Of a stretch of 64,000 nucleotides of DNA, positions 2,480-64,000 are shown piece after piece (position 1 is the stretch's first letter; the number at the start of each line of letters is the position of its first letter). A program made the position numbers and the translations under genes. The notes below the pieces were generated by a model. The model ran no database searches. It had not been told where the DNA came from and worked only from the letters and a program-made list of their open reading frames with translations. This stretch comes from Nonlabens tegetincola (GTDB taxonomy: Bacteria; Bacteroidota; Bacteroidia; Flavobacteriales; Flavobacteriaceae), in contig NZ_MQVV01000010.1 in the NCBI RefSeq assembly GCF_002954355.1, forward strand, positions 310,001 to 374,000, written 5' to 3'.

Positions 2480-3681
2480 GAAAGTAAGCGATCATTAATA
2501 CGTCTGGACCCTACGTAGCTGGCAATTATTCCTAAAATGGCTATGGTTCCAAAAGCTACTACAATATTTTCCCATCGCATAGCTACTGGATAAGGTAACT
2601 GTGGAGCTATGTAAATTAATTTGTATTCCAGCTGCGAATAAACAACAGCAACACCAATTAATAATCCTAAGACACCACCAGTAATTGTCATCAAGCTACC
2701 TTGAATAAAGAATATCCTGCGTAATTCGTGCACGCTCGCACCTAAATCGAGTAAAGTTTTTAGGTTTTGCTTTTTGTCCAATATCATCATGATAATAGCA
2801 CCTATCACATTGAACAAGGCGATAATTAGTACTAAAGTAAAAATAAGGTAGACCGCAAGATTTTCAGAATTCAACATTTTATACAAAGCATCATTCAGCT
2901 GGAACTTATTCTTTACTACTACGCTGTCTCCGTACATATCCTTAATCAATTCACGAGCTTCATTTTCACTTTCGTAAGAACTTAGTTTTATTTCAACGGC
3001 ACTAGCCATAGAATCTGGCATGTTTAGTAACTTTTGTGCCGCTTCATATCGCATAAACACGTATTTATTATCTAGATTTTCATTGATGCTAAAGGTACCT
3101 GTGGCAATAGCATCTAGTGTGTTGAATGAACTCTGAATGTTTAAAGCGGTAATGGCTCCTTTACCAGGTTTGGGCACCATGATTTGTAAAAATTCACTGT
3201 AGTCATTGACACTTAAGGATAGGTCTGATGCTATAGCTTGTCCGGCTACAATTTGAGCATTACTTTTTCCTAACCAAGAGCCGTAATATAGAATAGAATC
3301 TATTTTCACCATATCAATGTATTCATCGGGAACACCTTTGATATAAGCGATATCGTTTTTATCTTGATAATTTAAAAAAGCCTTTTCCTCTATTACGGGA
3401 CAAACTAATTGGATCGAGGGATGATTTTCTAGAGTTCGCTTTCGCGAAAGCGGAATTTCAACAACTTTACCATGACTGGGGAAAATAGACAAGTCCGGAT
3501 CAAAATAACTTGAAAACTGGGTACTAAAATCCTTTAAACCTGAAAACCCTGACAACACAATAAATAGTGATGCAGATCCAACTACAGTAATTATAAAACT
3601 AAGTATATTGATAATATTAATGGCGTTTTTACCATTTTTTGATATCAAATACCGTCTTGCAATAAAGGAGGATAGAGACAC
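2464..3681 (-). CDS. LolC/LolE-type ABC transporter permease (FtsX family)
   Basis: 405 residues with the four-helix layout of FtsX/MacB permeases. One helix is near the N-terminus (about residues 21-45), followed by a large periplasmic domain (about 50-270) and three helices in the C-terminal third. The N-terminal sequence FIARRYLISKNGKNAINIIN is typical of LolC/LolE-like proteins that extract lipoproteins from the inner membrane with a LolD ATPase. No ATPase gene is adjacent, so it would act with a partner encoded elsewhere. Translation starts at GTG, whose G is also the last base of the rbfA stop codon (TAGTG overlap), implying coupled translation. A palindrome copy at 3437-3452 encodes LSRKR in the periplasmic part. 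Confidence 0.8.
   Translation of the reverse strand: MSLSSFIARRYLISKNGKNAINIINILSFIITVVGSASLFIVLSGFSGLKDFSTQFSSYFDPDLSIFPSHGKVVEIPLSRKRTLENHPSIQLVCPVIEEKAFLNYQDKNDIAYIKGVPDEYIDMVKIDSILYYGSWLGKSNAQIVAGQAIASDLSLSVNDYSEFLQIMVPKPGKGAITALNIQSSFNTLDAIATGTFSINENLDNKYVFMRYEAAQKLLNMPDSMASAVEIKLSSYESENEARELIKDMYGDSVVVKNKFQLNDALYKMLNSENLAVYLIFTLVLIIALFNVIGAIIMMILDKKQNLKTLLDLGASVHELRRIFFIQGSLMTITGGVLGLLIGVAVVYSQLEYKLIYIAPQLPYPVAMRWENIVVAFGTIAILGIIASYVGSRRINDRLLSQAKL
3437..3452. repeat. 16-bp palindrome CGCTTTCGCGAAAGCG, copy 1
   Basis: Perfect copy inside the permease gene, where it is read as LSRK. Flanks are TT on the left and GAA on the right. Confidence 0.95.
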
Positions 3682-4076
3682 TATAGTTTTTTACGTCTAG
3701 GAAGAGTGTCAGGTTGTTCAATAGGATTGTTCTCGCCTTTGAGTTCTCTCTCTAATTGCTCCATGTACTCTAGGGAATCATCATTAAAAAATTGTAGTTC
3801 GGGCATACGTCGCATTTGATGTCTAACCTTTGATGCAACTTCATGCCTTATGCTACTTCCTAATTCTTTTATTTCTTTTACCACAGTTTCTGCCTTGTCT
3901 GCTGGGAACACAGATAAAAACACTTTAGCATATCCTAAATCGGGAGTTACTTGCACTTTTGTTACTGAAACGATGAGGTTCTTAACCGCATTCTTTCTCA
4001 TGATATTCTGTATGACCTGTGTAAGGTCCTCTTGTAGAATACCAGCTATCTTCTTCTGTCTGTTCGTTTCTTGCAT
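3681..4076 (-). CDS. rbfA: Ribosome-binding factor A
   Basis: 131 residues, within the usual 110-135. RbfA is a KH-fold protein that helps mature the 30S subunit, near 16S rRNA helix 1. The N-terminal helix (RQKKIAGILQEDLTQVIQN), the central VTPDLGYAKVFLSVFP and the C-terminal IRHEVASKVRHQMRRMPELQF with FNDDSLEY are all characteristic. It is followed without a gap by the permease (1-base overlap), so the two are co-transcribed. A TAnnTTTG box at 4081-4088 ends 4 bases before the ATG, suggesting a leaderless transcript. Confidence 0.93.
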   Translation of the reverse strand: MQETNRQKKIAGILQEDLTQVIQNIMRKNAVKNLIVSVTKVQVTPDLGYAKVFLSVFPADKAETVVKEIKELGSSIRHEVASKVRHQMRRMPELQFFNDDSLEYMEQLERELKGENNPIEQPDTLPRRKKL

Positions 4077-4080
4077 AATG

Positions 4081-4088
4081 CAAAATTA
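4081..4088 (-). promoter_or_regulatory. -7 box directly upstream of rbfA
   Basis: Minus strand TAATTTTG fits TAnnTTTG. It is separated by only 4 bases from the ATG at 4076, again consistent with a leaderless mRNA. Confidence 0.45.
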
Positions 4089-4122
4089 GTAAATTCCTTT
4101 ATAGCAGCGGTATAGTTATAGA

Positions 4123-6897
4123 TTACTTAACGACAAGAGTTTCTTTACTACTACCACTATTACCTGACAAGTGAACTGTGTAAGTGCCTTTAGGTAAGTA
4201 GGTCACACCATTTTGAGCAGGATCAGGGCGATCTTCTTTTTTAAATGCCTTAAGCCCAGCTTTACTTATACTACCGTCGTAGGTATAAAAATTCAATCCT
4301 TGATCACTAGTAAAAGCGGTCTCATAGATAGTTTTACCAGCTTCGTTTTTTATTTCTAGATTAACTTTTCCAGCAGTAGGGTTGAAGTATGAAATTTGGA
4401 TTTTTGGAGTTGGGCCATTGCTCCATAAGAATCCACGACTGCCGTACCTTCTAGAGAATCTTAGATCCTCAATAGATGCCATTTTAAACTCTGTACCTAC
4501 AAGGTCTAGAGCATTTAAATTTGCTAAGTAAATAGATCTACCGTGAGTTCCTATAAGTAAATCATTTGTTTGTGGTTGTATTTTTATATCATGAACTGCA
4601 ACTGGTGGCATACCACCTGATAACAATGTCCAAGTATTACCTTGGTCTAAACTTGCATAAGTTGCATTATCAGTTCCTATGAACAAGTAGTTTTCCTTCA
4701 TAGGATGCTCTGTTATAACATTAACTGGCGACCCAGGTATCGAAGTGGCTAATCGTTCCCATGTTTTACCATAATCCTCACTTTTATATACATAAGATTG
4801 AAAATCGTCCCATCGATATCCATTAAGAGTAACGTATACTCTTGATTTTTTATGTGAACTTGCTGTTACACGACTTACCCATAGGTCATTAGGCCATGGA
4901 CCGTCTAATTGCTCCCAATTGCTACCTCCATTTTTCGTAAGTTGTACAAGTCCATCATCTGTACCTGCGTAAATAAGTCCAAATTCAAACTTTGATTCAC
5001 TTATAGTTGTTATTGTGCCGTAAGCTACATTACCTGGCTTACCACCTTTAGTAAGATCTGGCGAAATAGCTGTCCACGTGTCTCCTTGATCTAGACTGCG
5101 CATTAATTTGTTGCCTCCTAAATATAAAATATCTTGATTATGAGAGGATAAAAGAATAGGAGTTTGCCAATTAAATCTATAAGGACTTTCTCCTAACTTA
5201 TGTTTAGGCTGGATGTAAGTGCGATCACCGTTTTCTCTATTAAGTCTAAAGTAATTTCCAAATTGGAAACCTGTGTATACGATATTACTATTTCTATTGT
5301 CAATTTGAATTTGCATACCATCACCGCCCATTATACTTTCCCAAGGATACTGACCTGATTGATGCCAAGCTCTATTTTCACGAGCAGTGTGTGATCCTAC
5401 CCATACACCGTTATCCTGTAAACCACCGTAAACATGATAAGGCTCTTCTAGGTCATAATTAATAGCATAAAATTGACCTACACTAGGTGTATTGTTTTTG
5501 ATCCAGGTTTCACCGTTGTCGTAAGAAATGTTTACACCACCATCATTACCATTTATAAGGTGGCCTTGCTTGTTAGGGTTTACCCATAGAGCATGGTGAT
5601 CTGCATGAACATTTTCACGTGATATGTTTTTAAAGGTTTTCCCACCATCGTTTGAGGTAATTATGGGAACACCCATTATATAAACTTCATTGATGTCTCT
5701 AGGATTTACTCTTACTTGGGCAAAGTAATAACCGTAGCTATAGAAAACATCATCAATTTGTCCTTCATGTGTTTTGTACCATGTTTTTCCTGCATCATCG
5801 CTACGATACAGCTCGGCACCTTTAACAGGTGTGTCAAAAAGTTGGCTATTTGCATCTTCTAGATATAGTGCAACGTCAGCCGGCGTTGCTTCACCTTTTT
5901 GTATCAGGTTTTTAACGCTTTCTGCTCTATACTTCTCTTGAAATCCATTCTCCTTCAAAAAAGCATTGAGTACTTTATTATCAAGTTTTAAGAAATCATC
6001 GGTTGACATTGACTTAAAGTCCTCTTTATTGATTTTTTTTGAGTTCGCTTTCGCGGAAGCGTTATCTCCATCTTTCTTATCTCTTCTAAATTGTGAATCG
6101 TGAATAGCGTATAATGTGTTATCATCAAATACAGAAAGGCCTATACGTCCTACACCTATTCCAGTAGGGAATCCACTATTTACTGTCGATATTTTAGTCC
6201 AGGTAAGGCCGGCATCCTCACTTTTGTAAATCGCGCTTCCATTACCAGCGCCATCAAAATTCCATGCTTTACGATCCTTTTCCCAACTAGTAGCGTATTG
6301 GGTATTAAAGTTGTTAGGATCATGAGCTAGATCAATAAAACCAGTCTTATCATCAATGTATAGCGTTTTATTCCAGGTTTTACCGCCATCCATGGTACTG
6401 TACATTCCTCTTTCTTCACTTAAAGAATATAATGGACCTGTAACAGCAACCACAACATTGTTTGGATTATCAGGGTTAATTATAATGCGACCTATGTGTT
6501 GACTATTTTTGAGCATGGGTGTACTCCATGTTTTTCCCCAATCGGATGATTTAATAATTCCTACACCAGCATAGCTGCTTCTACTAGCGTTGTTTTCTCC
6601 GGTGCCGGCCCATATGGTTTTATTTTTCCAGTCGACAGCGATATCGCCTAAGTTTATGGTAATGGCATTGTCCATTATAGGAGAGAAACTAGTACCATTG
6701 TTTGTAGTATGCCATAAACCACCGCTTGCATAGGCTACAAGAAACTCGGTTGGGTCTTGTGGATTCACATCAATATCCACTACACGTCCAGACATAACAG
6801 TAGGGCCAATGTTTTTAAATTCTAGGTTGGTAAGATTTTGCGCAAAAAGCAAAGTGGAAGAAAGGAAAAAAATGAGGACTGTTAATGTGCAGCGCAT
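4123..6897 (-). CDS. Secreted BNR/sortilin-type beta-propeller protein
   Basis: 924 residues with a Sec signal peptide (residues 1-19, ending LLFA-Q). The rest carries many BNR/Asp-box turns of the form S-x-D-x-G-x-T-W, for example SSDWGKTW, SEDAGLTW, SDDAGKTW, SYDNGETW, SLDQGDTW, SEDYGKTW and SLDQGNTW. This indicates tandem beta-propellers as in sortilin/VPS10 and xyloglucanase-like proteins. A lysine-rich stretch around residues 280-310 between propeller blades contains an imperfect copy of the palindrome (6046-6061). The final about 70 residues form a beta-sandwich-like tail ending GTYTVHLSG...LVVK that could be a T9SS sorting region, which I hold weakly. Substrate unknown; relatives are annotated as glycosyl hydrolases without proof. 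Confidence 0.8.
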   Translation of the reverse strand: MRCTLTVLIFFLSSTLLFAQNLTNLEFKNIGPTVMSGRVVDIDVNPQDPTEFLVAYASGGLWHTTNNGTSFSPIMDNAITINLGDIAVDWKNKTIWAGTGENNASRSSYAGVGIIKSSDWGKTWSTPMLKNSQHIGRIIINPDNPNNVVVAVTGPLYSLSEERGMYSTMDGGKTWNKTLYIDDKTGFIDLAHDPNNFNTQYATSWEKDRKAWNFDGAGNGSAIYKSEDAGLTWTKISTVNSGFPTGIGVGRIGLSVFDDNTLYAIHDSQFRRDKKDGDNASAKANSKKINKEDFKSMSTDDFLKLDNKVLNAFLKENGFQEKYRAESVKNLIQKGEATPADVALYLEDANSQLFDTPVKGAELYRSDDAGKTWYKTHEGQIDDVFYSYGYYFAQVRVNPRDINEVYIMGVPIITSNDGGKTFKNISRENVHADHHALWVNPNKQGHLINGNDGGVNISYDNGETWIKNNTPSVGQFYAINYDLEEPYHVYGGLQDNGVWVGSHTARENRAWHQSGQYPWESIMGGDGMQIQIDNRNSNIVYTGFQFGNYFRLNRENGDRTYIQPKHKLGESPYRFNWQTPILLSSHNQDILYLGGNKLMRSLDQGDTWTAISPDLTKGGKPGNVAYGTITTISESKFEFGLIYAGTDDGLVQLTKNGGSNWEQLDGPWPNDLWVSRVTASSHKKSRVYVTLNGYRWDDFQSYVYKSEDYGKTWERLATSIPGSPVNVITEHPMKENYLFIGTDNATYASLDQGNTWTLLSGGMPPVAVHDIKIQPQTNDLLIGTHGRSIYLANLNALDLVGTEFKMASIEDLRFSRRYGSRGFLWSNGPTPKIQISYFNPTAGKVNLEIKNEAGKTIYETAFTSDQGLNFYTYDGSISKAGLKAFKKEDRPDPAQNGVTYLPKGTYTVHLSGNSGSSKETLVVK
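6046..6061. repeat. 16-bp palindrome, copy 2 (one mismatch)
   Basis: CGCTTTCGCGGAAGCG, one base off the consensus, in the BNR protein gene. It is read as ASAKA, a variant of the AFAKA frame, in a Lys/Ser-rich linker. Confidence 0.85.
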
Positions 6898-13326: not shown

Positions 13327-13342
13327 CGCTTTCGCGAAAGCG
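13327..13342. repeat. 16-bp palindrome, copy 3 (intergenic)
   Basis: Perfect CGCTTTCGCGAAAGCG between the divergent trhO and recA promoters, followed by GAAT. Confidence 0.95.
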
Positions 13343-17275: not shown

Positions 17276-18014
17276 AAGATGCTCGTTCTAGTGATTGAAG
17301 AATTATTTGTCTTACGCTTTCGCGAAAGCGTACTTTATCATCCTGCAATGTCATACCAGTACTAGGTATACTAGGATGTACTATTGCTCTCATTTTCCCA
17401 GGACTTCCTTTAAAAAATTCAAATGGAAAACGCTTTTTATTATCAAATAAAGTGACGGGTAAAACAGGTATTTGATGTTCTATGGCAAGTCTAAAAGCGC
17501 CATCCTTAAAAGTGTCCAATAGAATACTTGTGTCGTCGGGAACTCCACCTTCAGGAAAAATACAAATTCCAACGCCGTCTTCCATACGTTGTCTGGCTCG
17601 ATCAAATACAGCTTTGCGGCTTTTTGGGTTGCTCCTGTCTACAAGAATACAAGTGCGTTTATAGAAAAAACCAAATAAAGGGATTTTTGCGAGCTCTTTT
17701 TTACCTACAAAAACAAATGGATTTTTTGATATCAACAACATCATCATAATATCAGTCATGCTAGTGTGGTTTGCCACTAGCATATAGCTTTGATGAGGAT
17801 CCATTTTGGCTAATCGTTTAATCTTTGGGAAGAATCCCATACCGTATAAAACGATGGCAGCCCACAATCTTGCAAGTTTAAAGAACCAATTGTAAGTTTT
17901 TTCAGAAATAGTAGTAAGAATTAACAATGGCATTAATACTACAATAGGAAGCCCTACTAGTACGTAGAACCACACTCGATAGACCGGCATTAATATGTAA
18001 CGTACTATTTTCAA
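17274..18014 (-). CDS. plsC: 1-acyl-sn-glycerol-3-phosphate acyltransferase (PlsC family)
   Basis: 246 residues, normal length. It transfers an acyl group to lysophosphatidate to make phosphatidate for membrane lipids, at the cytoplasmic face of the inner membrane. It has an N-terminal hydrophobic anchor (about residues 8-34), the catalytic NHTSMTD (HX4D), the second-block KKELAKIPLFG, the glycerol-phosphate-binding IFPEGGVPDD (EGG form) and the following PVLPVTLFD. A palindrome copy at 17315-17330 encodes RFRES near the C-terminus. A minus-strand TAnnTTTG box ends 7 bases from the ATG. Confidence 0.9.
   Translation of the reverse strand: MKIVRYILMPVYRVWFYVLVGLPIVVLMPLLILTTISEKTYNWFFKLARLWAAIVLYGMGFFPKIKRLAKMDPHQSYMLVANHTSMTDIMMMLLISKNPFVFVGKKELAKIPLFGFFYKRTCILVDRSNPKSRKAVFDRARQRMEDGVGICIFPEGGVPDDTSILLDTFKDGAFRLAIEHQIPVLPVTLFDNKKRFPFEFFKGSPGKMRAIVHPSIPSTGMTLQDDKVRFRESVRQIILQSLERAS
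17315..17330. repeat. 16-bp palindrome, copy 4
   Basis: Perfect copy near the 3' end of plsC, read as RFRES. Confidence 0.95.
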
Positions 18015-23563: not shown

Positions 23564-24325
23564 TTAAAGCTTTTTCAAATCCTCTAATGGCATCCAGGCC
23601 TTACTACCATTTGCGAGTTGTATGTGCGCCCAATCATTGAATTCTTCAAGGACCTCAACCTTAGTTCCTTCATGAATAACAAAGCTGGTGCCAGCGCTAT
23701 TTTTAGGTTCACTGCGAGTTGTGAATTCTTCTATGTAAACAATAGCAAATTGCTTTTTATCTAAATATTCACTACTGTAAAAGGCAGCAGCAGCAGTAGA
23801 TAAAAACAAAATACCAGTAAGAATGAAAAGAATAAAAAACAATCTTTTTTTACTTGTAGTTCCTGCGTAAATATAAAGTACTATGAATAGTATGGTAAAT
23901 AAGGCAGCAATGACACTAAAATAGGCCCATTCATCGACAGATAACGATTTTATAGTATCCTGTAAACTTCCAGATAAATTGTCTTGTGGTAAGGATTCTA
24001 TAGCGTCTATTTTCATACGATTGGCAAATGCTAGATTGCTCTTAATATCTTCGTTTTCAGGGTCTAGTTCTAGGGCTTTCTCGTAATTATAAATAGCCGG
24101 ACCTACCTGATTTAATTTGTAATGAGCATTAGCTAGATTAAAATAAACATCGGCACTGTGTAGACCTGTATTTAATACTTGCTCATAACCTGCAATTGCT
24201 ATTTCATAATTTTCGTTAGTATATGCTTGATTCGCTTTCGCGAAAGCGGAATAAGCAGCCTCTTCTTGACTGAAAATAGGCCAAGTTAATAGGACGGTAG
24301 CTAGAAAAATTAAGGTTGTTCTCAT
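23564..24325 (-). CDS. batE: BatE: TPR and SH3-like membrane protein
   Basis: 253 residues, the last gene of the Bat operon. Signal peptide 1-19 (MRTTLIFLATVLLTWPIFS); two TPR units (about 25-105: AFAKANQAYTNENYEIAIAG, YFNLANAHYKLNQVGPAIYNY); two membrane helices (about 133-155 and 163-182); and a C-terminal SH3-like domain (about 195-253, TTRSEPKNSAGTSFVIHEGT, then WAHIQLANGSKAWMP). The order matches BatE of Bacteroides and Leptospira-type bat loci, where the complex lies in the inner membrane and aids aerotolerance or stress resistance. A perfect palindrome copy encodes SAFAKA in the first TPR helix. The gene begins 4 bases after batD ends. Confidence 0.9.
   Translation of the reverse strand: MRTTLIFLATVLLTWPIFSQEEAAYSAFAKANQAYTNENYEIAIAGYEQVLNTGLHSADVYFNLANAHYKLNQVGPAIYNYEKALELDPENEDIKSNLAFANRMKIDAIESLPQDNLSGSLQDTIKSLSVDEWAYFSVIAALFTILFIVLYIYAGTTSKKRLFFILFILTGILFLSTAAAAFYSSEYLDKKQFAIVYIEEFTTRSEPKNSAGTSFVIHEGTKVEVLEEFNDWAHIQLANGSKAWMPLEDLKKL
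24233..24248. repeat. 16-bp palindrome, copy 6
   Basis: Perfect copy in batE, read as AFAKA in a TPR helix; followed by GAAT on the right. Confidence 0.95.
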
Positions 24326-26078: not shown

Positions 26079-26936
26079 TTACCAGTCTTTTTCTGATTTC
26101 TTAACGGTTCCTTTGGCCTTTTTACCGTTTACTTTCTTTTGAATTTTCTTTTCCTCGTTATTCATCGCCTCGAGCAACTGTTTAATTTGTTGTCTTGTCA
26201 TTTTTCCTTGCTGGCGTTGAGGTGCTTGTCCTTTTTGTTCTTCTGGTGAATCATTACCGTTTTCACCTTCGCTATTTTTTCCTTGGTCATCATTCTTTTG
26301 ATCACCATCATTTTTATCTTGATCTCCTTCTTTTTCGTCTTGATCTCCTTTATTATCACCATCAGACTTTTCGTCTTGATCACCTTCCTTATTCTTATCT
26401 TGTTCTTGCTCCTTTTCTTGCTGTTGGTTTTGATCATTCTCGTCATTACCGCCGCCACCGCCGCCACCTTGTTTCTCTTTTTCTTGCTTTGCAAGAGCTA
26501 GGTTATAACGAGTTTCATCGTCGGTAGGGTCGTTACGTAATGCGTTCTTATAGGCTTCAATAGCTTTATCGTAATCTTTGTTCTCTAATAAAGTGTTACC
26601 TATATTGTGAAAAATTTTATGCTTCATTTCTTTAGAAGTAGCAGCATCTGCAGCCTTTCTAAAATAGGAGTTTGCCTCAATTTTTTTCTCGTTGTTGTAA
26701 TACAGATTACCCAAATTATAAGCTGCTTGCGCATTATCTGGGTTTAATGATAGGGCTTTTTTGTATTCCGCTTCCGCGAAAGCGAAATCACCATCACTAG
26801 CAGCGTCTTGAGCATCTTTTATGGCTTGCTGTTCTGCGTAATTTATGGCTGGTTCTTGTTCGTTTTGAGCCGCAGTGTAGAATGATATTAGCATGAATAT
26901 CAAAACATAGGTGATATGTATACTATTATTATTCAT
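26079..26936 (-). CDS. batC: BatC: TPR protein with acidic low-complexity tail
   Basis: 285 residues. A signal-type N-terminus (about 1-23, IHITYVLIFMLISFYTAA) is followed by three TPR units (about 30-155; QAAYNLGNLYYNNEKKIEAN, HNIGNTLLENKDYDKAIEAY, ETRYNLALAKQEK). Then come a run of six glycines and a very acidic Asp/Glu/Lys/Gln-rich region (about 160-235), and a conserved end RQQIKQLLEAMNNEEKKIQKK. The start overlaps the end of batB by 8 bases. TPRs suggest a scaffolding role in the Bat complex. The low-complexity run produces large spurious open frames on other frames. An imperfect palindrome copy encodes AFAEAE in the first TPR. Confidence 0.88.
   Translation of the reverse strand: MNNNSIHITYVLIFMLISFYTAAQNEQEPAINYAEQQAIKDAQDAASDGDFAFAEAEYKKALSLNPDNAQAAYNLGNLYYNNEKKIEANSYFRKAADAATSKEMKHKIFHNIGNTLLENKDYDKAIEAYKNALRNDPTDDETRYNLALAKQEKEKQGGGGGGGNDENDQNQQQEKEQEQDKNKEGDQDEKSDGDNKGDQDEKEGDQDKNDGDQKNDDQGKNSEGENGNDSPEEQKGQAPQRQQGKMTRQQIKQLLEAMNNEEKKIQKKVNGKKAKGTVKKSEKDW
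26769..26784. repeat. 16-bp palindrome, copy 7 (one mismatch)
   Basis: CGCTTCCGCGAAAGCG in batC, one base off; read as AFAEA in the first TPR of the protein. Confidence 0.85.
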
Positions 26937-38673: not shown

Positions 38674-38689
38674 CGCTTTCGCGAAAGCG
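38674..38689. repeat. 16-bp palindrome, copy 10 (intergenic)
   Basis: Perfect copy 8 bases after the M16 partner gene's stop, just before the terminator. Confidence 0.95.
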
Positions 38690-42154: not shown

Positions 42155-43201
42155 TTAATGTTTGTAATCTCGCCAATATTCATTCATGAAACGTTCCATT
42201 AATACATGAACTGGCTTTTTAAAAGCGTCTTTAATAGGTGACAGTCCTTCCATGTAATCTTCTAGTTCTATAATCCAAAAAGTCGCATGTATTTTACGAT
42301 GTGATAATTTGTGAATAATAGGTTGTTGATTGTATACGCTTTCGCGAAAGCGTAACTCGCCTATAAGATCTTTAAACTCTATAGAATCTTTAATTTCAGA
42401 CACCATCGCCGCTCCTGGAGTCTCAACAAGAGGAAATTCATAAAGACCTTTCCAAATTCCTGATTCATCACGTTGTTGCAACAAAGTTTTTTGGTCTGGA
42501 GAAATAATTACAAGGTAATTATGGAACAAATTTTTGACCTTGGTTTTTCTAGGCTTAACCGGTAACTCATCAATTAAACCCTTTTCGTGGGCAACGCAAT
42601 CATTTTTAAATACACACGAAGCGCAATTTGGATTTTTTGGAATGCATTGTAGGGCTCCAAACTCCATCATCGCTTGATTAAAGATGTCCGGCTGCTCTTT
42701 ATCCATAAGTTGTGCAGCAAGATGAGTAAACTCTTTTACGGCTGCTGGCGTATTTATAGGCGTATTGATATGAAAAATTCTGGAAAGCACTCGATACACG
42801 TTACCATCTACCACGGGAACAGCTTCCTTGTTAGAAAAGCTCGCAATGGCAGCAGCCGTATAAGTGCCTACACCTTTAAGTTTAAGCAAATCTTTGTATT
42901 GGGTAGGGAATTTACCTAGTTCTACTACTTGCTGTGCGGCTTTATGTAAATTACGTGCTCTAGAATAATATCCTAATCCTTGCCATAATTTAAGAACGTC
43001 GTCCAGCGGTGCAGCAGCAAGCATTTCAACTTTGGGGTAGGTTTCAACAAACTTGTTGTAGTAAGGAAGGCCTTGTGCTACACGAGTTTGTTGGAGAATT
43101 ACCTCACTCAACCATATGTAATAAGGATTAGTAGTATGACGCCAAGGTAGATCTCTTTTGTTAACTAAATACCAATCAATGAGTTGGCTCGAAAAGTTCA
43201 T
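42155..43201 (-). CDS. mutY: A/G-specific adenine glycosylase
   Basis: 348 residues. MutY removes adenine mispaired with 8-oxoguanine. Visible are the catalytic-Glu region EVILQQTRVAQGLPYY, the HhH hairpin LLKLKGVGTYTAAAIASF, the catalytic-Asp VPVVDGNVYRVLSR, the iron-sulfur cluster cysteines CIPKNPNCASCVFKNDC (C-X6-C-X2-C-X5-C), and a C-terminal NUDIX-like domain (about 220-345) that recognises 8-oxoG. A perfect palindrome copy encodes RFRES in that domain. All key residues appear intact. Confidence 0.95.
   Translation of the reverse strand: MNFSSQLIDWYLVNKRDLPWRHTTNPYYIWLSEVILQQTRVAQGLPYYNKFVETYPKVEMLAAAPLDDVLKLWQGLGYYSRARNLHKAAQQVVELGKFPTQYKDLLKLKGVGTYTAAAIASFSNKEAVPVVDGNVYRVLSRIFHINTPINTPAAVKEFTHLAAQLMDKEQPDIFNQAMMEFGALQCIPKNPNCASCVFKNDCVAHEKGLIDELPVKPRKTKVKNLFHNYLVIISPDQKTLLQQRDESGIWKGLYEFPLVETPGAAMVSEIKDSIEFKDLIGELRFRESVYNQQPIIHKLSHRKIHATFWIIELEDYMEGLSPIKDAFKKPVHVLMERFMNEYWRDYKH
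42337..42352. repeat. 16-bp palindrome, copy 11
   Basis: Perfect copy in mutY, read as RFRES in the C-terminal domain. Confidence 0.95.
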
Positions 43202-45486: not shown

Positions 45487-46569
45487 TTATTCCTTATACA
45501 TTCCAATAACTAGATCTCCTTTATCGTTCATACTAGCACGATACATACCAGCTGTATTAAACTCCATAGAAACATTACCATATTTATCAAGAGATACGAT
45601 TCCACCAGTTCCACCTAATGCAGTAAGCTTTTTCTGTATAACCTCTTCCGTAGCTTCTTCTAGTGTAAGTCCTTTGTACTCCATAAGTGCACTTATGTCA
45701 TAAGCAACTTGACCACGTATAAAGTATTCACCGTGACCAGTGCTAGAAATACCACAAGTGTTATTATTTGCATACGTACCACTACCTATAATAGGAGAAT
45801 CACCTATACGACCGTACTTCTTATTAGTCATACCACCTGTGCTTGTTCCGGCTGCGATATTTCCATTTTTATCTAATGCAACACAACCTACCGTTCCATA
45901 TTTAGAATCTTGTATAAAAGGATCTTGAAAATTCATAGCTGTTCCATTATCTCCTTCTTCTGCCTCTTTTTCAAGTATACGTTGTAGGGATTGATAACGT
46001 CTTTCTGTGTAAAAATATTTATTGTCCACAATCTCTATGTTTGGATTTTGTTGCGCTTTCGCGAAAGCGTCACTACCGCTGCCACTCAATAATACATGTT
46101 CACTATCGGTCATGACCAATCGGGCTAATGAGATCGGGTTTTTCACTGTACTCACTCCAGCAATAGCTCCAGCATTTAAGGTTTTACCATCCATGAAGCT
46201 AGCGTCTAAAGAGTTAACTCCTTCATGAGTAAAAACAGCTCCTTTTCCTGCATTAAATAAAGGAGAATCTTCCATAATTCTTATACTAGCTTCAACAGCA
46301 TCCATAGCGCTACCACCTTTGGCTAAAACGTCGTGTCCAGCTTTGATAGACTCGGTAAGCTTGTCGTTGTAAGCCTTTTCGAGTTCAGGAGTCATGTTTT
46401 CTTTTTTGATTGTTCCTGCACCACCGTGAATAACTATAGCGTATTCGCTTACTTGTTGATTGTTATTATCTGTGCTAATTGTAAGATCTTGATTAGGTGA
46501 GTTTTCTTCCTTTGGTTTACAGGAAGTAAATAGACAGAATACACAAATGAAAAGAGCAATAATTCTCAT
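45487..46569 (-). CDS. Isoaspartyl peptidase/L-asparaginase (Ntn-hydrolase), lipoprotein
   Basis: 360 residues. The lipoprotein signal MRIIALFICVFCLFTSCKP, Cys17, places it in the cell envelope. The mature protein matches plant-type asparaginases: AIVIHGGAGTIKKENMTPEL, the conserved GKGAVFTHEGVNSLDASFMD, the autoprocessing site with nucleophile Thr in SKYGTVGCVALDKNGNIAAG, and STGGMTNKKYGRIGDSPIIG. The enzyme self-cleaves to alpha and beta chains and removes iso-Asp dipeptides or Asn. A perfect palindrome copy encodes DAFAKA in the alpha chain. It is a single gene convergent with RNase G/E. Confidence 0.92.
   Translation of the reverse strand: MRIIALFICVFCLFTSCKPKEENSPNQDLTISTDNNNQQVSEYAIVIHGGAGTIKKENMTPELEKAYNDKLTESIKAGHDVLAKGGSAMDAVEASIRIMEDSPLFNAGKGAVFTHEGVNSLDASFMDGKTLNAGAIAGVSTVKNPISLARLVMTDSEHVLLSGSGSDAFAKAQQNPNIEIVDNKYFYTERRYQSLQRILEKEAEEGDNGTAMNFQDPFIQDSKYGTVGCVALDKNGNIAAGTSTGGMTNKKYGRIGDSPIIGSGTYANNNTCGISSTGHGEYFIRGQVAYDISALMEYKGLTLEEATEEVIQKKLTALGGTGGIVSLDKYGNVSMEFNTAGMYRASMNDKGDLVIGMYKE
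46054..46069. repeat. 16-bp palindrome, copy 12
   Basis: Perfect copy in the isoaspartyl peptidase gene, read as AFAKA. Confidence 0.95.
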
Positions 46570-48296: not shown

Positions 48297-51152
48297 ATGG
48301 TACATTACAAGCACATTGAGATTGAGAAAAAGTGGCAAGAATACTGGGCCCAAAACAAAACGTTTAAAGCCGTTAATCACAGTGACAAACCTAAATTCTA
48401 TGCACTAGATATGTTTCCGTATCCTAGTGGTGCTGGGCTTCACGTAGGTCACCCATTAGGTTACATCGCTAGTGATATCGTTTCACGATACAAACGTCAC
48501 ACTGGTTTCAATGTACTACATCCTATGGGTTATGATAGCTTTGGTCTTCCTGCCGAGCAGTATGCCATACAGACTGGGCAGCATCCTGCAATCACGACTC
48601 GTGATAATATTGCTAGATACCGTGAGCAAATGGACCGTATCGGGTTTAGCTTTGACTGGGATCGTGAGGTAAAAACCAGTAATCCAGATTATTATAAATG
48701 GACTCAGGAGATATTTATATTGCTTTTTGATAGCTGGTATGATAAAGATGTAGATAAGGCAAAACCTATTAGTGAATTAGAATCTCGCTTTCGCGAAAGC
48801 GGAACAACCACTATCAACGCTGCTACTGATGAGGATTTACAAGAATTCACAGCAGATGAGTGGAACAGCTATACCAAAGAAGAACAAGAGAAAATCTTGC
48901 TAGATTATCGCCTTACTTACCTGGCAGATACTGAGGTGAACTGGTGTCCGGCGCTAGGAACTGTACTGGCAAATGATGAGATAGTAAACGGAGTAAGCGA
49001 ACGTGGTGGACATCCAGTAGTGCGCAAGAAAATGCGCCAGTGGATGATGCGTATCAGTGCCTATGCAGAGCGTTTGTTAAACGACCTAGATGGATTAGAC
49101 TGGAGCGATAGTATTAAAGAAATACAGCGCAACTGGATTGGGAAATCTGTTGGTGCTATGGTTAGTTTTAAACTAGACGAGCATAAAATTGATGTTTTCA
49201 CAACGCGACCTGATACTATTTACGGTGTAACCTTTATGACGCTGGCTCCAGAACATGAGCTAGTGGATAGCATCACAACCGATGCTCAACGCGATGCCGT
49301 AGAAGCCTATAAAAAAGCCACCGCAGCACGATCAGAACGTGAACGTATGGCAGATGTAAAAACCATAAGTGGTGTATTTACTGGTGCTTATGCTACGCAT
49401 CCATTAAGCGGTGATAAAATACCTGTGTGGATAGGTGATTATGTGCTTGCTGGATATGGTACTGGTGCTGTTATGGCAGTACCGTGCGGTGATGAGCGTG
49501 ATCATGCCTTTGCTAATTATTTTGCCGGTCAAGAAGGAATGCCAGCGATTAAAAATATTTTTGAAGGTGTAGATATAAGTGAAGAAGCCTATACAGCCAA
49601 AGACAACACGCCTATTTGTAACAGTGATTTCCTTAATGGAATGAGCTATAAGCAAGCGATGGCTGCCGCTATTGAAAAATTAGAAGAAATAGGCGCTGGA
49701 AAAGGAAAAACAAATTATCGCTTGCGCGATGCAGTTTTCTCTAGACAGCGTTATTGGGGTGAACCATTCCCAGTGTATTATAAGAACGGGTTACCACAAA
49801 TGATAGACCGTAAGCATTTACCACTAGAATTGCCAGAAGTAGATGAATATCTACCTACAGAAGATGGTGCGCCGCCTTTGGGACGTGCGACTACTTGGAG
49901 TTGGTGTACAATGGAAAACAAAGTGGTATCCAATGATGACGATCGCGATTGCGTGTACCCATTAGAATTGAACACCATGCCTGGTTGGGCTGGTAGCTCG
50001 TGGTATATGTTTAGATACATGGATGCGAGTAATGAGAATGAAATGTTCTCAAAAGAAGCACAAGAATATTGGGAAAACGTAGACTTGTACATAGGTGGTA
50101 GCGAGCACGCAACAGGTCATTTGTTATATAGTAGATTTTGGGTGAAAGTGTTGCACGATCTTGGAAAAGTAACGGTCAACGAACCTTTTAAAAAGTTGAT
50201 TAATCAAGGGATGATACTGGGTGAGAGTGCTTTTGTTAAAGAACTTGAAGTTGAAGTAGAATCTGGAATTGAAAAAGTTTTTATCTCTCAAGGAGTAAAC
50301 TTTGATGGTAAAGTCAAATCAGGTCGTAAACTTCACACAGATGTTTCTTTTGTAAACAACTCTAACGAATTGGATGTTAAATCATTTCAAACTTGGAGAC
50401 AAGATGCGAGAGATAAAAAATTCATTCATAACGATGACGGTGTTTTCAAGGTCTCTCGTGAGGTTGAAAAAATGTCCAAGTCTAAGTTCAACGTAGTCAA
50501 CCCAGACGACATTTGTGAACAGTACGGTGCAGATACGCTGCGTTTGTACGAGATGTTCCTCGGGCCGCTGGAGCAAGCAAAACCATGGAATACCGCTGGT
50601 ATAACAGGAGTATATGGTTTCATTAAAAAGCTATGGAAACTATATCATAATGAAAACGGCTTCCATGTAAGTGATGAAAAAGCATCGCCAGAAAGCATGA
50701 AGACGCTTCATAAAACCATCAAAAAAGTTCGTGAGGATATCGAGAACTTCTCGTTTAATACGAGTGTGAGTAGTTTTATGATTGCCGTTAATGAGTTAAC
50801 TGCTCAAAAATGCGATAGCCGCGAAGTTTTAGAACCGCTTGCGATATTGGTTTCACCTTATGCGCCTCACATCGCAGAAGAGTTATGGTCACTACTAGGT
50901 CATGAGGAAAGTATAGCCTACGTTGATTTCCCGGTTTTTGAAGAAAAGTACTTAGTAGAGAGCAGCAAGAAGTATCCTATCTCGTTCAATGGTAAAATGA
51001 AATTTACTTTAGAATTACCGGTTGATGCCAGTAAAGACGAGCTAGAAAAACTAGTGCTGGAAAATGACAAGGTTAGACAGCAGTTAGAAGGGAAGACAAT
51101 TCGTAAAACGATTGTCGTACCTGGCAAGATTGTCAACTTTGTGGTAGGATAA
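48297..51152 (+). CDS. leuS: Leucyl-tRNA synthetase
   Basis: 951 residues, class I synthetase charging tRNA-Leu. YPSGAGLHVGHPLGY holds the HIGH-type motif, the CP1 editing domain occupies the region about 230-420 (TTRPDTIYGVTFMTLAPEHE, then AVMAVPCGDERDHAF), and KMSKSKFNVVNPDDI is the ATP-binding KMSKS loop. The C-terminal anticodon-binding domain is complete. A perfect palindrome copy encodes SRFRESG in an insertion near residue 165, a loop that varies among LeuRS proteins. Own promoter and no close operon partner. Confidence 0.96.
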   Translation: MVHYKHIEIEKKWQEYWAQNKTFKAVNHSDKPKFYALDMFPYPSGAGLHVGHPLGYIASDIVSRYKRHTGFNVLHPMGYDSFGLPAEQYAIQTGQHPAITTRDNIARYREQMDRIGFSFDWDREVKTSNPDYYKWTQEIFILLFDSWYDKDVDKAKPISELESRFRESGTTTINAATDEDLQEFTADEWNSYTKEEQEKILLDYRLTYLADTEVNWCPALGTVLANDEIVNGVSERGGHPVVRKKMRQWMMRISAYAERLLNDLDGLDWSDSIKEIQRNWIGKSVGAMVSFKLDEHKIDVFTTRPDTIYGVTFMTLAPEHELVDSITTDAQRDAVEAYKKATAARSERERMADVKTISGVFTGAYATHPLSGDKIPVWIGDYVLAGYGTGAVMAVPCGDERDHAFANYFAGQEGMPAIKNIFEGVDISEEAYTAKDNTPICNSDFLNGMSYKQAMAAAIEKLEEIGAGKGKTNYRLRDAVFSRQRYWGEPFPVYYKNGLPQMIDRKHLPLELPEVDEYLPTEDGAPPLGRATTWSWCTMENKVVSNDDDRDCVYPLELNTMPGWAGSSWYMFRYMDASNENEMFSKEAQEYWENVDLYIGGSEHATGHLLYSRFWVKVLHDLGKVTVNEPFKKLINQGMILGESAFVKELEVEVESGIEKVFISQGVNFDGKVKSGRKLHTDVSFVNNSNELDVKSFQTWRQDARDKKFIHNDDGVFKVSREVEKMSKSKFNVVNPDDICEQYGADTLRLYEMFLGPLEQAKPWNTAGITGVYGFIKKLWKLYHNENGFHVSDEKASPESMKTLHKTIKKVREDIENFSFNTSVSSFMIAVNELTAQKCDSREVLEPLAILVSPYAPHIAEELWSLLGHEESIAYVDFPVFEEKYLVESSKKYPISFNGKMKFTLELPVDASKDELEKLVLENDKVRQQLEGKTIRKTIVVPGKIVNFVVG
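48786..48801. repeat. 16-bp palindrome, copy 13
   Basis: Perfect copy in leuS, read as RFRES; followed by GAAC. Confidence 0.95.
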
Positions 51153-53146: not shown

Positions 53147-53162
53147 TGCTTTCGCGAAAGCG
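53147..53162. repeat. 16-bp palindrome, copy 14 (intergenic, one end base different)
   Basis: TGCTTTCGCGAAAGCG, 14 bases after the dut stop. Confidence 0.9.
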
Positions 53163-54275: not shown

Positions 54276-55661
54276 ATGAACAGCATGACTAGAAAAATCA
54301 TATTTTTTTCACTTTTAACCTTAGGGTTACAAGTTCATGTTGGTGCTCAAGAACAAGGTGAGCAAGATGAGGTTAATGTGGATTTGCTACAGGATGTTTC
54401 AAGTGAGTTTAAAGAGAAGTTTTTTAACGCACTTACTGAAAAAGCAAAGGAAAACCACAACAAAGCCATAAATATTCTATTAGAGTGTGAAGAACTAGAG
54501 CCTAATGCTGCGATAATTCAATTTGAACTGGCAAAAAATTATGAGGCAATTTCCGCTTTCGCGAAAGCGGAACAATCCTTACTAAGAGCCATTGAAATAG
54601 ATGGGAAAAGAGAATGGGTTCTAGACAAATTATATGATGTTTATGATAAGCAACAAAAATTTGATGAAGGACTTGAGATTCTAGAAGAACTCACGCAAAT
54701 TAATCCGATTTATGAAGAGTTGTTGCCCTATCAATACTATAGAACGCAGCAATATCAAAAATGTGTTGATATAATCAATAAGTTGGATAAGCGATTGGGC
54801 GTTGACAAGCGACGTACCTTTTTACAATCACAAGCAAAAAAGCAGCTAGGAATCGTTGAGGATTTAAACGAGGACATCACAGGAGCTTTAGCTAGAATCC
54901 AAAATGATGATAAAGATGAACAGGCATATATTGAGCTTATTTATTATTACAGTAAAAAGAAAGATCAAGAGAACACTCTAAAGTATGCTGAATTATTAGA
55001 TAAAAATGTTCCTGATAGTGATAAAGCCCATCTCGCTTTGTATAAAATTTATCTGGATGCAGGTAGGTTAAGAAAAGGAATACGTAGCATGAAAAAGGTT
55101 TTTAAATCACCGCAATTTGATGATGAAACCAAAGTGCGCGTACTCAATGATTTTATTACGACTAGTACGCATGATGATGAACTCATGGATGATGTAAAGG
55201 ATGCCATCGATGTTTTTTCAGATTATGTAGAAAACCCTGAAGCCTTTACGGCTCTAGGAGCCTATTATTTGGAGAAAAAGAATGATCCCAGTGCGGCACT
55301 TGCTTTTTATGAAAAAGGATTGGAAATTAATGATCAAGACTTTGATCTTATAAAAAAGGCAGCTTTATTATCTATAGACGTTAAGGATTACAGCAAGGCT
55401 CATGATATATTAGAAAAAGCATTATCCTACTTTCCAGCCCAACCTTTGTTCTATTTGTTAGATGGTGTTGCCTTAAATTATCTTGATAAACCTGATGATG
55501 CTATTGAACGCTTGGAATCTGGAATGACCTACTTATTAGACGAGATTCAATTGGAACGAGATATCTATCAACAGCTTGCTATAAGCTATGATAAAAAAGG
55601 TAATGCAACACAAGCAGTAAAAATGCGTTCTAAAGCTCAAGAATTATCTAAAAAATTATAA
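54276..55661 (+). CDS. TPR-repeat secreted protein
   Basis: 461 residues (a second ATG three codons in may be the real start). Signal peptide about 1-26 (TRKIIFFSLLTLGLQVHVGA). At least ten tetratricopeptide helices follow (NAAIIQFELAKNYEAISAFA, YFPAQPLFYLLDGVALNYLD, QQLAISYDKKGNATQAVKMR), so it is a solenoid for protein contacts, probably in the periplasm or on an outer-membrane assembly. A perfect palindrome copy encodes SAFAKAEQ in a TPR helix. The start lies 10 bases after the nucleotidyltransferase gene; the stop overlaps the next ATG by one base. Confidence 0.83.
   Translation: MNSMTRKIIFFSLLTLGLQVHVGAQEQGEQDEVNVDLLQDVSSEFKEKFFNALTEKAKENHNKAINILLECEELEPNAAIIQFELAKNYEAISAFAKAEQSLLRAIEIDGKREWVLDKLYDVYDKQQKFDEGLEILEELTQINPIYEELLPYQYYRTQQYQKCVDIINKLDKRLGVDKRRTFLQSQAKKQLGIVEDLNEDITGALARIQNDDKDEQAYIELIYYYSKKKDQENTLKYAELLDKNVPDSDKAHLALYKIYLDAGRLRKGIRSMKKVFKSPQFDDETKVRVLNDFITTSTHDDELMDDVKDAIDVFSDYVENPEAFTALGAYYLEKKNDPSAALAFYEKGLEINDQDFDLIKKAALLSIDVKDYSKAHDILEKALSYFPAQPLFYLLDGVALNYLDKPDDAIERLESGMTYLLDEIQLERDIYQQLAISYDKKGNATQAVKMRSKAQELSKKL
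54554..54569. repeat. 16-bp palindrome, copy 15
   Basis: Perfect copy in the TPR protein gene, read as AFAKA; both flanks carry TTC/GAA. Confidence 0.95.
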
Positions 55662-59287: not shown

Positions 59288-59303
59288 CGCTTTCGCGAAA
59301 GCG
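59288..59303. repeat. 16-bp palindrome, copy 16 (intergenic)
   Basis: Perfect copy directly after a terminator's T run and about 50 bases before the glyS promoter box. Confidence 0.95.
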
Positions 59304-61833: not shown

Positions 61834-61854
61834 CAATCTTTAAAAACAAAAATT

Positions 61855-62823: not shown

Positions 62824-63437
62824 GCAAACAGACCTGTAAGTTCTGCATCAATTTTATTGATGATATCACCTAGATCTTCAGGGTTATTTACAAAATCTAT
62901 GTGATCCACGTCTATGATTAGGAGATTTCCCTTGTTGTAGCCGTGGATCCATGCTTCATAGCGCTCGTTAAGTCGACTTAGATAATCAATAGATATTGAG
63001 TTTTCATAATCGCGCCCACGCTTTTGAATTTGCCCAACAAGATTAGGGATGCTACTGCGCAGATAAATTAAAAGATCTGGTGCAGCAACTAGCTTTTCCA
63101 TTAGATCAAATAGTGATGCATAGTTATCAAAATCACGTTGAGATAACAAGCCCATCGCATGCAAGTTAGGGGCAAAAATATTAGCATCTTCATAAATGGT
63201 TCTATCCTGAATAATTTTTTTACCACTTTCTCTAATTTCCAGCACTTGACGGAAACGGCTGTTTAAAAAGTAAACTTGCAGGTTAAAGGACCATCGTTCC
63301 ATATCGGTATAGAAATCTTCCAAATATGGATTTTCAAGGACATCTTCAAATTGTGGAGTCCATTTGTAATGTTTTGCTAGTAATTTGGTAAGGGTTGTTT
63401 TACCAGCGCCTATATTTCCCGCAACAGCTATATGCAT
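62820..63437 (-). CDS. Deoxynucleoside kinase
   Basis: 205 residues. It phosphorylates deoxynucleosides (deoxyadenosine/deoxyguanosine kinase-like) for nucleotide salvage. A P-loop GNIGAGKTTLTK, the nucleobase-binding ENPYLEDFYTDMERWSFNLQ, the DRT motif IIQDRTIYEDANIF and the lid region RSSIPNLVGQIQKRGRDYEN identify the family. Located 4 bases before the partial gene to its right on the same strand, so co-transcribed with it. Base specificity cannot be read with certainty. Confidence 0.92.
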   Translation of the reverse strand: MHIAVAGNIGAGKTTLTKLLAKHYKWTPQFEDVLENPYLEDFYTDMERWSFNLQVYFLNSRFRQVLEIRESGKKIIQDRTIYEDANIFAPNLHAMGLLSQRDFDNYASLFDLMEKLVAAPDLLIYLRSSIPNLVGQIQKRGRDYENSISIDYLSRLNERYEAWIHGYNKGNLLIIDVDHIDFVNNPEDLGDIINKIDAELTGLFA

Positions 63438-63440
63438 GAT

Positions 63441-64000
63441 CTATTTCTTGAAATTCAACTCTAGGCTGTGAATCTTGCCTGAGGTCCAAATATAAAGGTT
63501 TCCCGTCTTTAGATGAAAGCTTTTGTTGTTTTCAGTAATCAAAATTTCCTTTGGGATTTTGGTTGTTTCGCTTTCGCGAAAGCGAAAATCTTTACCAAAA
63601 TTATAGGATGTAACATCATTGCCTTGAATTATTACCAATTGTTCTAGATGATAGGCTAGCATTGCGCCATTCAAACTCAAAGTTGATGTCTTACTACCAT
63701 AAGTATTGAATGAAATTAGAGAGTTGTCTACTTGAACATGGCAGAAGTTATAATCGGTATATAAATGTCGTATGTTGCCTTTAATAACTGGTGTTGAAGA
63801 GATGATTCTATTATTGATATAATCGTATAATTCTATTTGATTAGTATCGGCATTGAGCATCCATAAACGTCTATCGCCTGCAAGCTGGACTTTACTAATG
63901 AATCTTAGTGGATTAAGTGTACTTAAGGTTACTCGCTGTATTTCATTAAGTCTGTTGTCAAGAATTACAACGGTTTGAGTATCCTCATAAAAAACAACGA
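63441..64000 (-). CDS. Partial beta-rich protein (possible beta-propeller), C-terminal part
   Basis: The open frame continues beyond the right window edge without a stop (codons for VVFYEDTQTVVILDNRLNE are at the edge), so the methionine at 63858-63860 is internal, not the start. The visible about 185 residues form short beta strands in a repeating pattern (ILDNRLNEIQRVTLSTLNPL, MLNADTNQIELYDYINNR, HVQVDNSLISFNTYGSKTST, VIIQGNDVTSYNFG) like blades of a propeller. A palindrome copy encodes FRFRES. It precedes the deoxynucleoside kinase gene by 4 bases. No function assigned. Confidence 0.7.
   Translation of the reverse strand, partial: VVFYEDTQTVVILDNRLNEIQRVTLSTLNPLRFISKVQLAGDRRLWMLNADTNQIELYDYINNRIISSTPVIKGNIRHLYTDYNFCHVQVDNSLISFNTYGSKTSTLSLNGAMLAYHLEQLVIIQGNDVTSYNFGKDFRFRESETTKIPKEILITENNKSFHLKTGNLYIWTSGKIHSLELNFKK
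63569..63584. repeat. 16-bp palindrome, copy 17
   Basis: Perfect copy in the partial gene at the right edge, read as RFRES. Confidence 0.95.

What the first reader, a model, noticed from the sequence alone, without database searches (positions are those of the whole stretch)
3437..63584. A 16-bp palindrome, CGCTTTCGCGAAAGCG, occurs 17 times with unusually even spacing
Direct: starts at 3437, 6046, 13327, 17315, 19991, 24233, 26769, 30106, 33459, 38674, 42337, 46054, 48786, 53147, 54554, 59288 and 63569. Chance expectation for a 16-mer in 64 kb is far below one. The 16 gaps average about 3.8 kb with a hand-computed coefficient of variation of about 0.35, where random placement gives about 1. 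Twelve copies are inside genes, five are between them. Established: HIP1 of cyanobacteria and DNA-uptake sequences of Neisseria and Pasteurellaceae show this genome-wide, coding-tolerant, fairly even distribution. Inference: this is a comparable highly iterated signal, for uptake, nucleoid organisation, segregation, or methylation/repair bias.
Basis: partly seen in the sequence, partly recalled or inferred. Interest (0 to 1): 0.88.

Follow-up and report, generated by a model that had tools for sequence, protein, structure and literature searches.

The report
Evenly spaced 16-bp genome-wide DNA signal
Marine Nonlabens and Dokdonia bacteria carry the same 16-letter palindrome about every 4 kb along the chromosome, far more evenly than chance and even inside an essential gene, which points to an undescribed DNA address system, possibly for taking up their own kind's DNA.

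Summary
The signal is genome-wide: 464 exact copies in 3.03 Mb, 628 with up to 2 mismatches (reversed control 0 and 2). All 22 other genomes of the genus (Nonlabens) searched have 180-737; a Dokdonia has 630 and one further genus 153; no other of 397 family genomes exceeds 13. In 454 kb, 106 sites lie 4.3 kb apart with CV 0.44 (random 0.99; E. coli Chi in 150 kb 1.08). Sites use all three reading frames, arose by substitution where tested (leuS), and carry C-poor, T/G-rich flanks of 17 nt. Imperfect sites in D. sinensis fill gaps between perfect ones. Phage contigs, one with an integrase, carry sites; two isolated Nonlabens phages do not. HIP-type methylation drive, regional marks, a ParB paralogue and RNA hairpins fit poorly. 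Best reading: a clade-specific DNA signal, each site serving about 4 kb, most like the uptake signals of Pasteurellaceae and Neisseria; a chromosome-organising role is the main rival. No reader protein was found; the motif is in no paper of the searched open library.

The parts
3437..3452 (.). site, exact, inside gene 2464-3681(-)
6046..6061 (.). site, 1 mismatch, inside gene 4123-6897(-)
13327..13342 (.). site, exact, intergenic
17315..17330 (.). site, exact, inside gene 17274-18014(-)
24233..24248 (.). site, exact, inside gene 23564-24325(-)
26769..26784 (.). site, 1 mismatch, inside gene 26079-26936(-)
30106..30121 (.). site, 1 mismatch, inside gene 28980-30617(-)
33459..33474 (.). site, 1 mismatch, intergenic
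38674..38689 (.). site, exact, intergenic
42337..42352 (.). site, exact, inside gene 42155-43201(-)
46054..46069 (.). site, exact, inside gene 45487-46569(-)
48786..48801 (.). site, exact, inside leuS (48297-51152, +); present in 19 of 19 Nonlabens examined
53147..53162 (.). site, 1 mismatch, intergenic
54554..54569 (.). site, exact, inside gene 54276-55661(+), TPR-like below the family cut-offs
59288..59303 (.). site, exact, intergenic, upstream of glyS (59356-60903, +)
63569..63584 (.). site, exact, inside a minus-strand gene whose low end is 63441 and which runs past the window end
48769..48818 (.). example of the whole footprint: 17 nt C-poor flank + 16-bp core + 17 nt G-poor flank (the extent is inferred from 106 sites, not from this one)

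Best explanation
A clade-specific, sequence-coded DNA signal, read on double- or single-stranded DNA by a protein not yet found. Each site serves about 4 kb of neighbouring DNA, so a second site close by adds little and is not kept, and a long gap is filled. My preferred mechanism, inferred and not shown, is that of an uptake signal: during natural transformation a receptor prefers fragments that carry the site, and homologous recombination spreads and preserves it, so that spacing settles near the length of incorporated fragments. The readable unit may be one arm plus the core plus a T/G-rich, C-poor flank (about 30 bp); the Nonlabens palindrome would then be two such units overlapping head to head, readable from either end. 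Shown: genome-wide array, evenness, substitution origin in leuS, flanks, conservation of place, presence in phage contigs and absence from two isolated phages.
For: Count and range. Evenness: CV 0.44 over 106 sites, 1 gap under 1 kb against 21.9 expected; 0.39 over 36 cores in 120 kb of D. sinensis. Near-perfect consensus: 79 exact, 22 one-off, 5 two-off in 454 kb, the kind of profile reported for USS (PMC1939737, PMC1626085, passages seen). Substitution origin: the LeuS alignment is gapless across the site in the 21 rows, and D. sinensis has the site at the same place in another frame; USS are likewise described as not insertions, more regular than random and richer in non-coding DNA (PMC1626085, passages); here 28 of 106 sites are intergenic while about 9% of the sequence is. 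One-armed sites of Dokdonia keep the C-poor flank mainly on the complete side, resembling a USS core with AT-rich segments on one side. Neisseria DUS spacing matches conversion-fragment length (PMC2397512, abstract and passages). Phage contigs have the sites, two isolated Nonlabens phages have none. ComEC-family protein in 6 of 6 motif genomes examined.
Against: No receptor was found, and no paper in the library holds both Nonlabens and natural competence (Dokdonia was not searched for). ComEC is about as common without the motif (11 of 12 genomes). Spacing is 4-5 kb, not about 1 kb as for USS (PMC7811141, summary passage) and DUS, and is much more even than 'somewhat more regular'. Phage contigs and mobile segments carry the sites, several at near chromosomal density, which uptake drive explains only if they are long-term residents. 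The flank is G/T-rich and C-poor, not simply AT-rich. The one-arm flank result falls to P = 0.049 (pooled) and to P = 0.083 and 0.48 in the two sets apart when 4 of 23 sites with inserted hairpins are left out, and G234 does not show it.
Confidence: 0.42

Rival explanations
1. Chromosome organisation: an abundant DNA-binding protein loads at each site and condenses, bridges or tethers about 4 kb around it, giving a chromosome-wide ruler.
For: Very even spacing and no regional trend. Sites kept at the same places across the genus. Two-fold symmetry suits a dimer. Phage contigs (one with an integrase) and mobile segments carry sites while two isolated phages do not.
Against: No candidate protein. 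The obvious one, a ParB paralogue, is not shared by carriers: 5 of 6 motif genomes searched have a single ParB_N match, the sixth has an extra 616-aa one of the kind seen beside mobile segments, and 16 non-motif genomes have 1-3. One-armed sites that still belong to the array fit an obligate dimer less well.
Confidence: 0.27
2. A bidirectional Chi-like site: a helicase-nuclease reading from either side stops degrading and loads RecA at the site; the T/G-rich 5' flank would be the loading strand.
For: Density close to E. coli Chi (mean 3.9 kb). AddB-like PDDEXK_1 proteins in all 18 genomes searched. Flanks are strand-asymmetric and G/T-rich. The two phages without sites list their own Erf-type and YqaJ-type recombination genes. 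RecA's taste for GT-rich DNA is recalled, not looked up.
Against: Chi in a 150-kb E. coli stretch is spaced like random points (CV 1.08, 37 sites) and oriented 27 to 10. One-armed sites here show no clear preference relative to genes (10 same, 7 opposite, 12 non-coding, G234 included); replication direction was not known. The enzyme family is equally present in genera without the motif.
Confidence: 0.13
3. HIP-like product of DNA methylation and biased repair at an internal motif such as TCGCGA or CGCG.
For: Palindrome with an internal CGCG, coding-tolerant, genome-wide, like HIP1 (PMC4390886, abstract and passages).
Against: Outside the sites TCGCGA is at expectation (54 against 50), TTCGCGAA 2 against 6, CGCG 482 against 645. 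Long, asymmetric flanks and one-armed sites are unexplained. Methyltransferases were not searched.
Confidence: 0.04
4. A mobile or RNA-level palindrome: an inserted REP-like element, a terminator or an RNA hairpin.
For: Perfect palindrome; other hairpin elements do insert in these genomes.
Against: No gap in the coding alignment tested (leuS). Flanks show no pairing covariation (0.361 against 0.354 +/- 0.011). Only 1 of 27 classified intergenic sites lies between convergent genes. Flanks are not repeats.
Confidence: 0.04

Closest known systems
Uptake signal sequences of Pasteurellaceae (USS)
   Same: Strong core, more perfect than mismatched copies, many in genes, origin by substitution, a flank of biased composition beside the core, more regular than random (PMC1626085, PMC7811141, PMC1939737, passages seen)
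   Different: Palindromic 16 bp rather than a 9-bp one-way core; 4-5 kb rather than about 1 kb spacing; much more even; C-poor G/T-rich flank; other phylum; uptake untested
DNA uptake sequences of Neisseria (DUS)
   Same: Iterated, genome-wide, clade-specific; spacing in Neisseria matches conversion-fragment length (PMC2397512, abstract and passages)
   Different: 10-bp one-way motif without flanks (PMC1626085, passage); no ComP-type receptor was searched for here
HIP1 of cyanobacteria
   Same: Highly iterated palindrome in coding and non-coding DNA
   Different: 8 bp, tied to methyltransferases of inner motifs (PMC4390886, abstract); here the inner motifs are not enriched
Chi sites
   Same: Similar density, cis-acting on kilobases (recalled)
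   Different: Short, one-way, orientation-biased and spaced like random points in the E. coli stretch measured
matS, Noc, SlmA and parS sites (recalled)
   Same: Palindromic protein sites of about 12-16 bp
   Different: Tens of copies with regional bias (recalled), against hundreds without regional trend here; a separate parS-type sequence is present in the 454 kb

Membership tests
DNA uptake signal (USS/DUS) | Preferential uptake of DNA that carries it | not testable with these tools
   needs a bench assay
DNA uptake signal (USS/DUS) | Genome-wide over-representation with perfect copies outnumbering mismatched ones | tested here: met
   464 exact of 628 with up to 2 mismatches; 79:22:5 in 454 kb
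DNA uptake signal (USS/DUS) | Arises by substitution, not insertion | tested here: met
   gapless LeuS alignment in 21 rows; one gene only. In one search, 112 of 824 DNA pairs had an alignment gap at the site and were only sampled by eye
DNA uptake signal (USS/DUS) | Species has competence machinery | tested here: inconclusive
   ComEC family in 6 of 6 motif genomes but also 11 of 12 others; the outer-membrane step was not searched
DNA uptake signal (USS/DUS) | Scarce in foreign DNA | tested here: inconclusive
   0 within 3 mismatches in two isolated Nonlabens phages, present in phage contigs
HIP (methylation-linked iterated palindrome) | Inner methyltransferase motif over-represented | tested here: not met
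   inner motifs at or below expectation outside sites
HIP (methylation-linked iterated palindrome) | Matching methyltransferase in carriers | not tested
   no methyltransferase search was made
Chi | Recognised by RecBCD or AddAB | not testable with these tools
   AddB-like family present in all 18 genomes searched
Chi | Orientation bias of one-way sites | tested here: inconclusive
   29 one-armed sites (23 Dokdonia, 6 G234): 10 with, 7 against the gene, 12 non-coding; replication direction unknown; E. coli yardstick 27:10
Macrodomain or nucleoid-occlusion sites | Regional distribution between origin and terminus | tested here: not met
   2-9 sites in each of 20 stretches round G019, no trend; the stretch with 2 is partly masked
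Noc/ParB sites | Extra ParB-family protein in carriers | tested here: not met
   one ParB_N match in 5 of 6 motif genomes, two in the sixth

The most novel reading that the evidence does not exclude
A chromosome-wide ruler of a new kind in Bacteroidota: a two-armed, either-way readable signal held at about 4-kb intervals by selection on gap length, carried also by phages and mobile segments that live in the chromosome, and used as a landing pad by small hairpin elements because a cellular enzyme opens or nicks it.
Probability: 0.25. Interest if true: 0.88.

Novelty: new variant of a known kind. Interest (0 to 1): 0.75.

Why it matters
If it is an uptake signal, it would be one in a phylum for which the searches made here turned up none, with a form (two overlapping arms) and an evenness that let the theory of uptake drive be tested: spacing should equal the length of incorporated fragments. 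If it is an intracellular site, it is a chromosome ruler with hundreds of known positions, ready for ChIP, Hi-C and recoding in cultured marine bacteria. Either way the array is so regular that gap-filling selection could be measured directly.

Tried and rejected
Rejected or weakened: ParB/Noc paralogue; HIP-type inner motif; extended hairpin; terminator; regional marking; larger repeats. Led nowhere: BLAST of a 32-bp site in the phage and plasmid collections is too short to be informative. De novo 12-mers in one 20-kb stretch from each of 20 other genomes of the family showed no such motif; most recurring words were AT-rich with 3 copies, but G131 and G384 had GC-richer words around TCCATCCCCAA in 3-4 copies that I did not examine, and this test would miss shorter motifs. 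The LeuS tree splits the three carrier lineages (at least 2 changes forced); the RpoB tree (9 rows) joins Dokdonia with G234 and leaves Nonlabens unresolved, so one origin is neither shown nor excluded. AddB-like and ComEC presence does not separate carriers from non-carriers. I first read the one-armed sites as strong evidence for a one-way unit; one search showed that part of the flank contrast comes from inserted hairpins, so the claim is now only suggestive. Not done: methyltransferase search, structure prediction, search for a reader by comparing proteomes.
Full report
1. The observation. The window holds 11 exact copies of CGCTTTCGCGAAAGCG and 6 with one mismatch; none has 2 or 3 (shuffle expectation 0.00 and 0.06). 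The gap CV is 0.36, against 0.95 +/- 0.20 for random points. Twelve are in genes and five between genes.

2. Whole genome and relatives. The genome of the window (G000, 3,028,293 bp, 21 contigs) has 464 exact copies, with 0 for the reversed control. With up to 2 mismatches it has 628, control 2. In one search (59 genomes including G000) all 22 other genomes of the genus have 180-737 copies, while 1 of the 36 others has any (4 copies). In one search (397 genomes of the family) 48 have a match: four are of the own genus, G234 has 153 and G250 has 630, and the other 42 have 1-13. The 12-mer TTTCGCGAAAGC gives 476-983 per strand in G234, G250 and the three own-genus genomes (259 genomes) and at most 23 per strand elsewhere. 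In 198 genomes across the phylum the 14-mer CTTTCGCGAAAGCG exceeds 5 per strand only in G000. Equal contig lengths tie the own genus to Nonlabens (G009:C1 1027445, uncultured Nonlabens; G012:C32 1660217, N. ulvanivorans; also G003, 'Flavobacteria bacterium BBFL7') and G250 to Dokdonia sinensis (483439); this is an inference from length. The name of G234's genus is unknown.

3. Even spacing. In 454 kb around the window there are 79 exact, 22 one-off and 5 two-off sites. The mean gap is 4,318 bp, CV 0.44, smallest 845, largest 9,251. Random placement gives CV 0.99 (lowest of 5,000: 0.73), and 21.9 gaps under 1 kb where 1 is seen. Keeping the coding and intergenic shares gives the same (mean 1.00, lowest 0.66). 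As a yardstick, 37 Chi sites in 150 kb of E. coli have CV 1.08, while blocks of 37 sites here have 0.36-0.50. In 20 stretches of 20 kb round a complete Nonlabens chromosome (G019) density is 2-9 per stretch with no trend; the stretch with 2 is partly masked; CV within stretches is 0.48, and 6 of 91 gaps are under 1 kb. G234 is looser (CV about 0.8).

4. What the site looks like. On the 5' side of each strand C is depleted from -2 to -17 (for example 0.019 at -3 against 0.177) and back near normal at -18 to -22, with weaker dips at -23, -24 and -27. T and G are raised. In the ten positions next to the core the bias is stronger between genes (C 0.039) than in genes (0.084). In coding sites C is depleted at all three codon positions of the 5' flank, and G at all three of the 3' flank. 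Left and right flanks do not covary, so this is not a longer hairpin. Inner cores are not enriched outside the sites.

5. Coding cost and origin. 78 of 106 sites are coding, in all three frames (39, 23, 16). In leuS all 19 Nonlabens examined (of 23 in the genus set) have the site, 17 reading RFRES and 2 CFRES. D. sinensis has it at the same spot in another frame (AFAKA). G234 has HFEKQ and no site. The alignment of these 21 rows has no gap. In the leuS regions of 21 genomes (20 kb each, 25 kb for G000) 78 of 99 sites had an aligned counterpart; of 824 pairs, 704 keep the site within 2 mismatches, 8 have lost it without a gap, and 112 have an alignment gap at the site. Of those 112 at most six per site were printed and read by eye: some are intact sites shifted by a few bases, others are losses in less conserved DNA, one holds an inserted hairpin.

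6. One-armed sites. In 180 kb of D. sinensis 57 TTTCGCGAAA cores include 14 with one full arm and at most one match in the other. In 120 contiguous kb, 10 imperfect sites lie among 26 palindromic ones. Together CV is 0.39, where random placing of the 10 gives 0.69, 0 of 20,000 as low; they lie 3.5 kb from the nearest palindromic site against 1.5 kb expected. So imperfect sites belong to the same array. In 23 one-armed Dokdonia sites C in the flank is 0.079 on the complete side and 0.176 on the other (P = 6e-5); without four sites that hold inserted hairpins it is 0.090 against 0.142 (P = 0.049 pooled; 0.083 and 0.48 in the two sets apart). G234 shows no such contrast (6 sites).

7. Phages and mobile segments. 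41 stretches in viral contigs hold the 16-mer. Several with high GC hold one copy and look like chance hits. Others hold 2-7 sites with up to one mismatch in the pieces read. Their flanks are C-poor (0.03-0.13) in most contigs of GC 0.36-0.41, but not in one of GC 0.38 (0.18) or two of GC 0.45-0.47 (0.16 and 0.20). I scanned 20 proteins from 5 of these contigs: four contigs have head, packaging or tail proteins, one of them also an integrase (L014); the fifth (L016) matches only a phage family of unknown function. Two isolated Nonlabens phages, P12024L and P12024S, have no site within 3 mismatches in 35 kb each. Their records show no integrase among the 56 and 57 features listed and do show Erf-type and YqaJ-type genes; that they are lytic is recalled, and that the host is a Nonlabens rests on the record names. 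In other genera low counts cluster with repeated gaps of 933 and about 2,446-2,481 bp.

8. Hairpin landings. The 20-21-bp hairpin family CCTG(C/T)CTG..CAG(G/A)CAGG has 9 distinct copies in the fetched DNA. 5 split a perfect site without duplication (two of these, in G004 and G008, are the same place in two related species), 3 lie in remains of sites with 3, 4 and 6 mismatches, 1 does not. Genome counts of CCTGCCTGNCGGCAGGCAGG: 8 of 19 Nonlabens have it (not G000), as do G250 and G234, and 1 of 14 non-carriers. A second family (TTCGACTSCGCTCA) has 3 of 5 copies next to site fragments, against 2-3.5% background. The site thus seems open to insertion; an HUH-type enzyme is a guess.

9. Candidate readers. 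ParB_N: one match in 5 of 6 carriers and two in G019; 16 non-carriers have 1-3. PDDEXK_1 (AddB-like): all 18 genomes. ComEC family: 17 of 18, the miss being a non-carrier. None separates carriers from others.

10. Literature. The motif and three of its cores are in no paper of the searched library. 'Highly iterated palindrome' with Bacteroidetes: none. Nonlabens with natural competence: none. Nonlabens with palindrome: 7 listed, by title on other subjects, not opened. DNA uptake sequence with Flavobacteri- and natural transformation: 2 listed. One of them reports that Riemerella columbina is competent and prefers its own DNA, and looked for repeats of up to 10 bp in three species; the top 10-mers in the passage seen are A-rich (PMC7965970, passages). 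The library holds open-licence papers only, so absence is not proof.

11. Judgement. What it works like: an iterated address that serves several kilobases with saturation. Uptake is preferred at 0.42 because consensus strength, mismatch profile, substitution origin, coding share and (suggestively) a one-sided flank match USS and DUS. A nucleoid role follows at 0.27 because of the extreme evenness and lack of regional trend. A Chi-like role has 0.13.

Noticed in passing
L175:366-385, L309:4207-4226, L214:6848-6868, L240:4585-4604, L241:4574-4593: A 20-21-bp hairpin (CCTGCCTGNCGGCAGGCAGG family) sits exactly inside otherwise perfect 16-bp sites, cut at CGCT|TTCG in D. sinensis and CGCTTT|CGCG in Nonlabens, without target duplication; L240 and L241 are the same place in two species.
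   Followed up: partly
L070, L273, L278: A second hairpin family (TTCGACTSCGCTCA) also lies next to or inside site fragments in 3 of 5 copies.
   Followed up: partly
G033:C18, G122, G131, G145, G155, G188, G259, G352; L005, L074: Other genera hold small clusters of the site with the same gaps (933, about 2446-2481 bp), apparently a shared mobile segment; the two pieces read (L005, L074) encode efflux and multicopper oxidase families, and a 616-aa ParB-type protein lies near several clusters.
   Followed up: partly
leuS of G005, G010, G015, G018: Open frame of 1158-1219 aa against 956 in the window's genome, as if LeuS carries extra in-frame sequence; the protein match breaks near residue 550.
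   Followed up: no
G234 (complete genome, 3,163,819 bp): Third carrier genus with GC 0.46 in the part read, looser spacing and weak flanks: perhaps a decaying or younger array.
   Followed up: partly
L189 (G131), L199 (G384): Words around TCCATCCCCAA recur 3-4 times in each 20-kb stretch of two other genera.
   Followed up: no
G000:C10 about 258538 (outside the window): A parS-type sequence is present once in the 454 kb, so ParB-parS probably exists beside this array.
   Followed up: no
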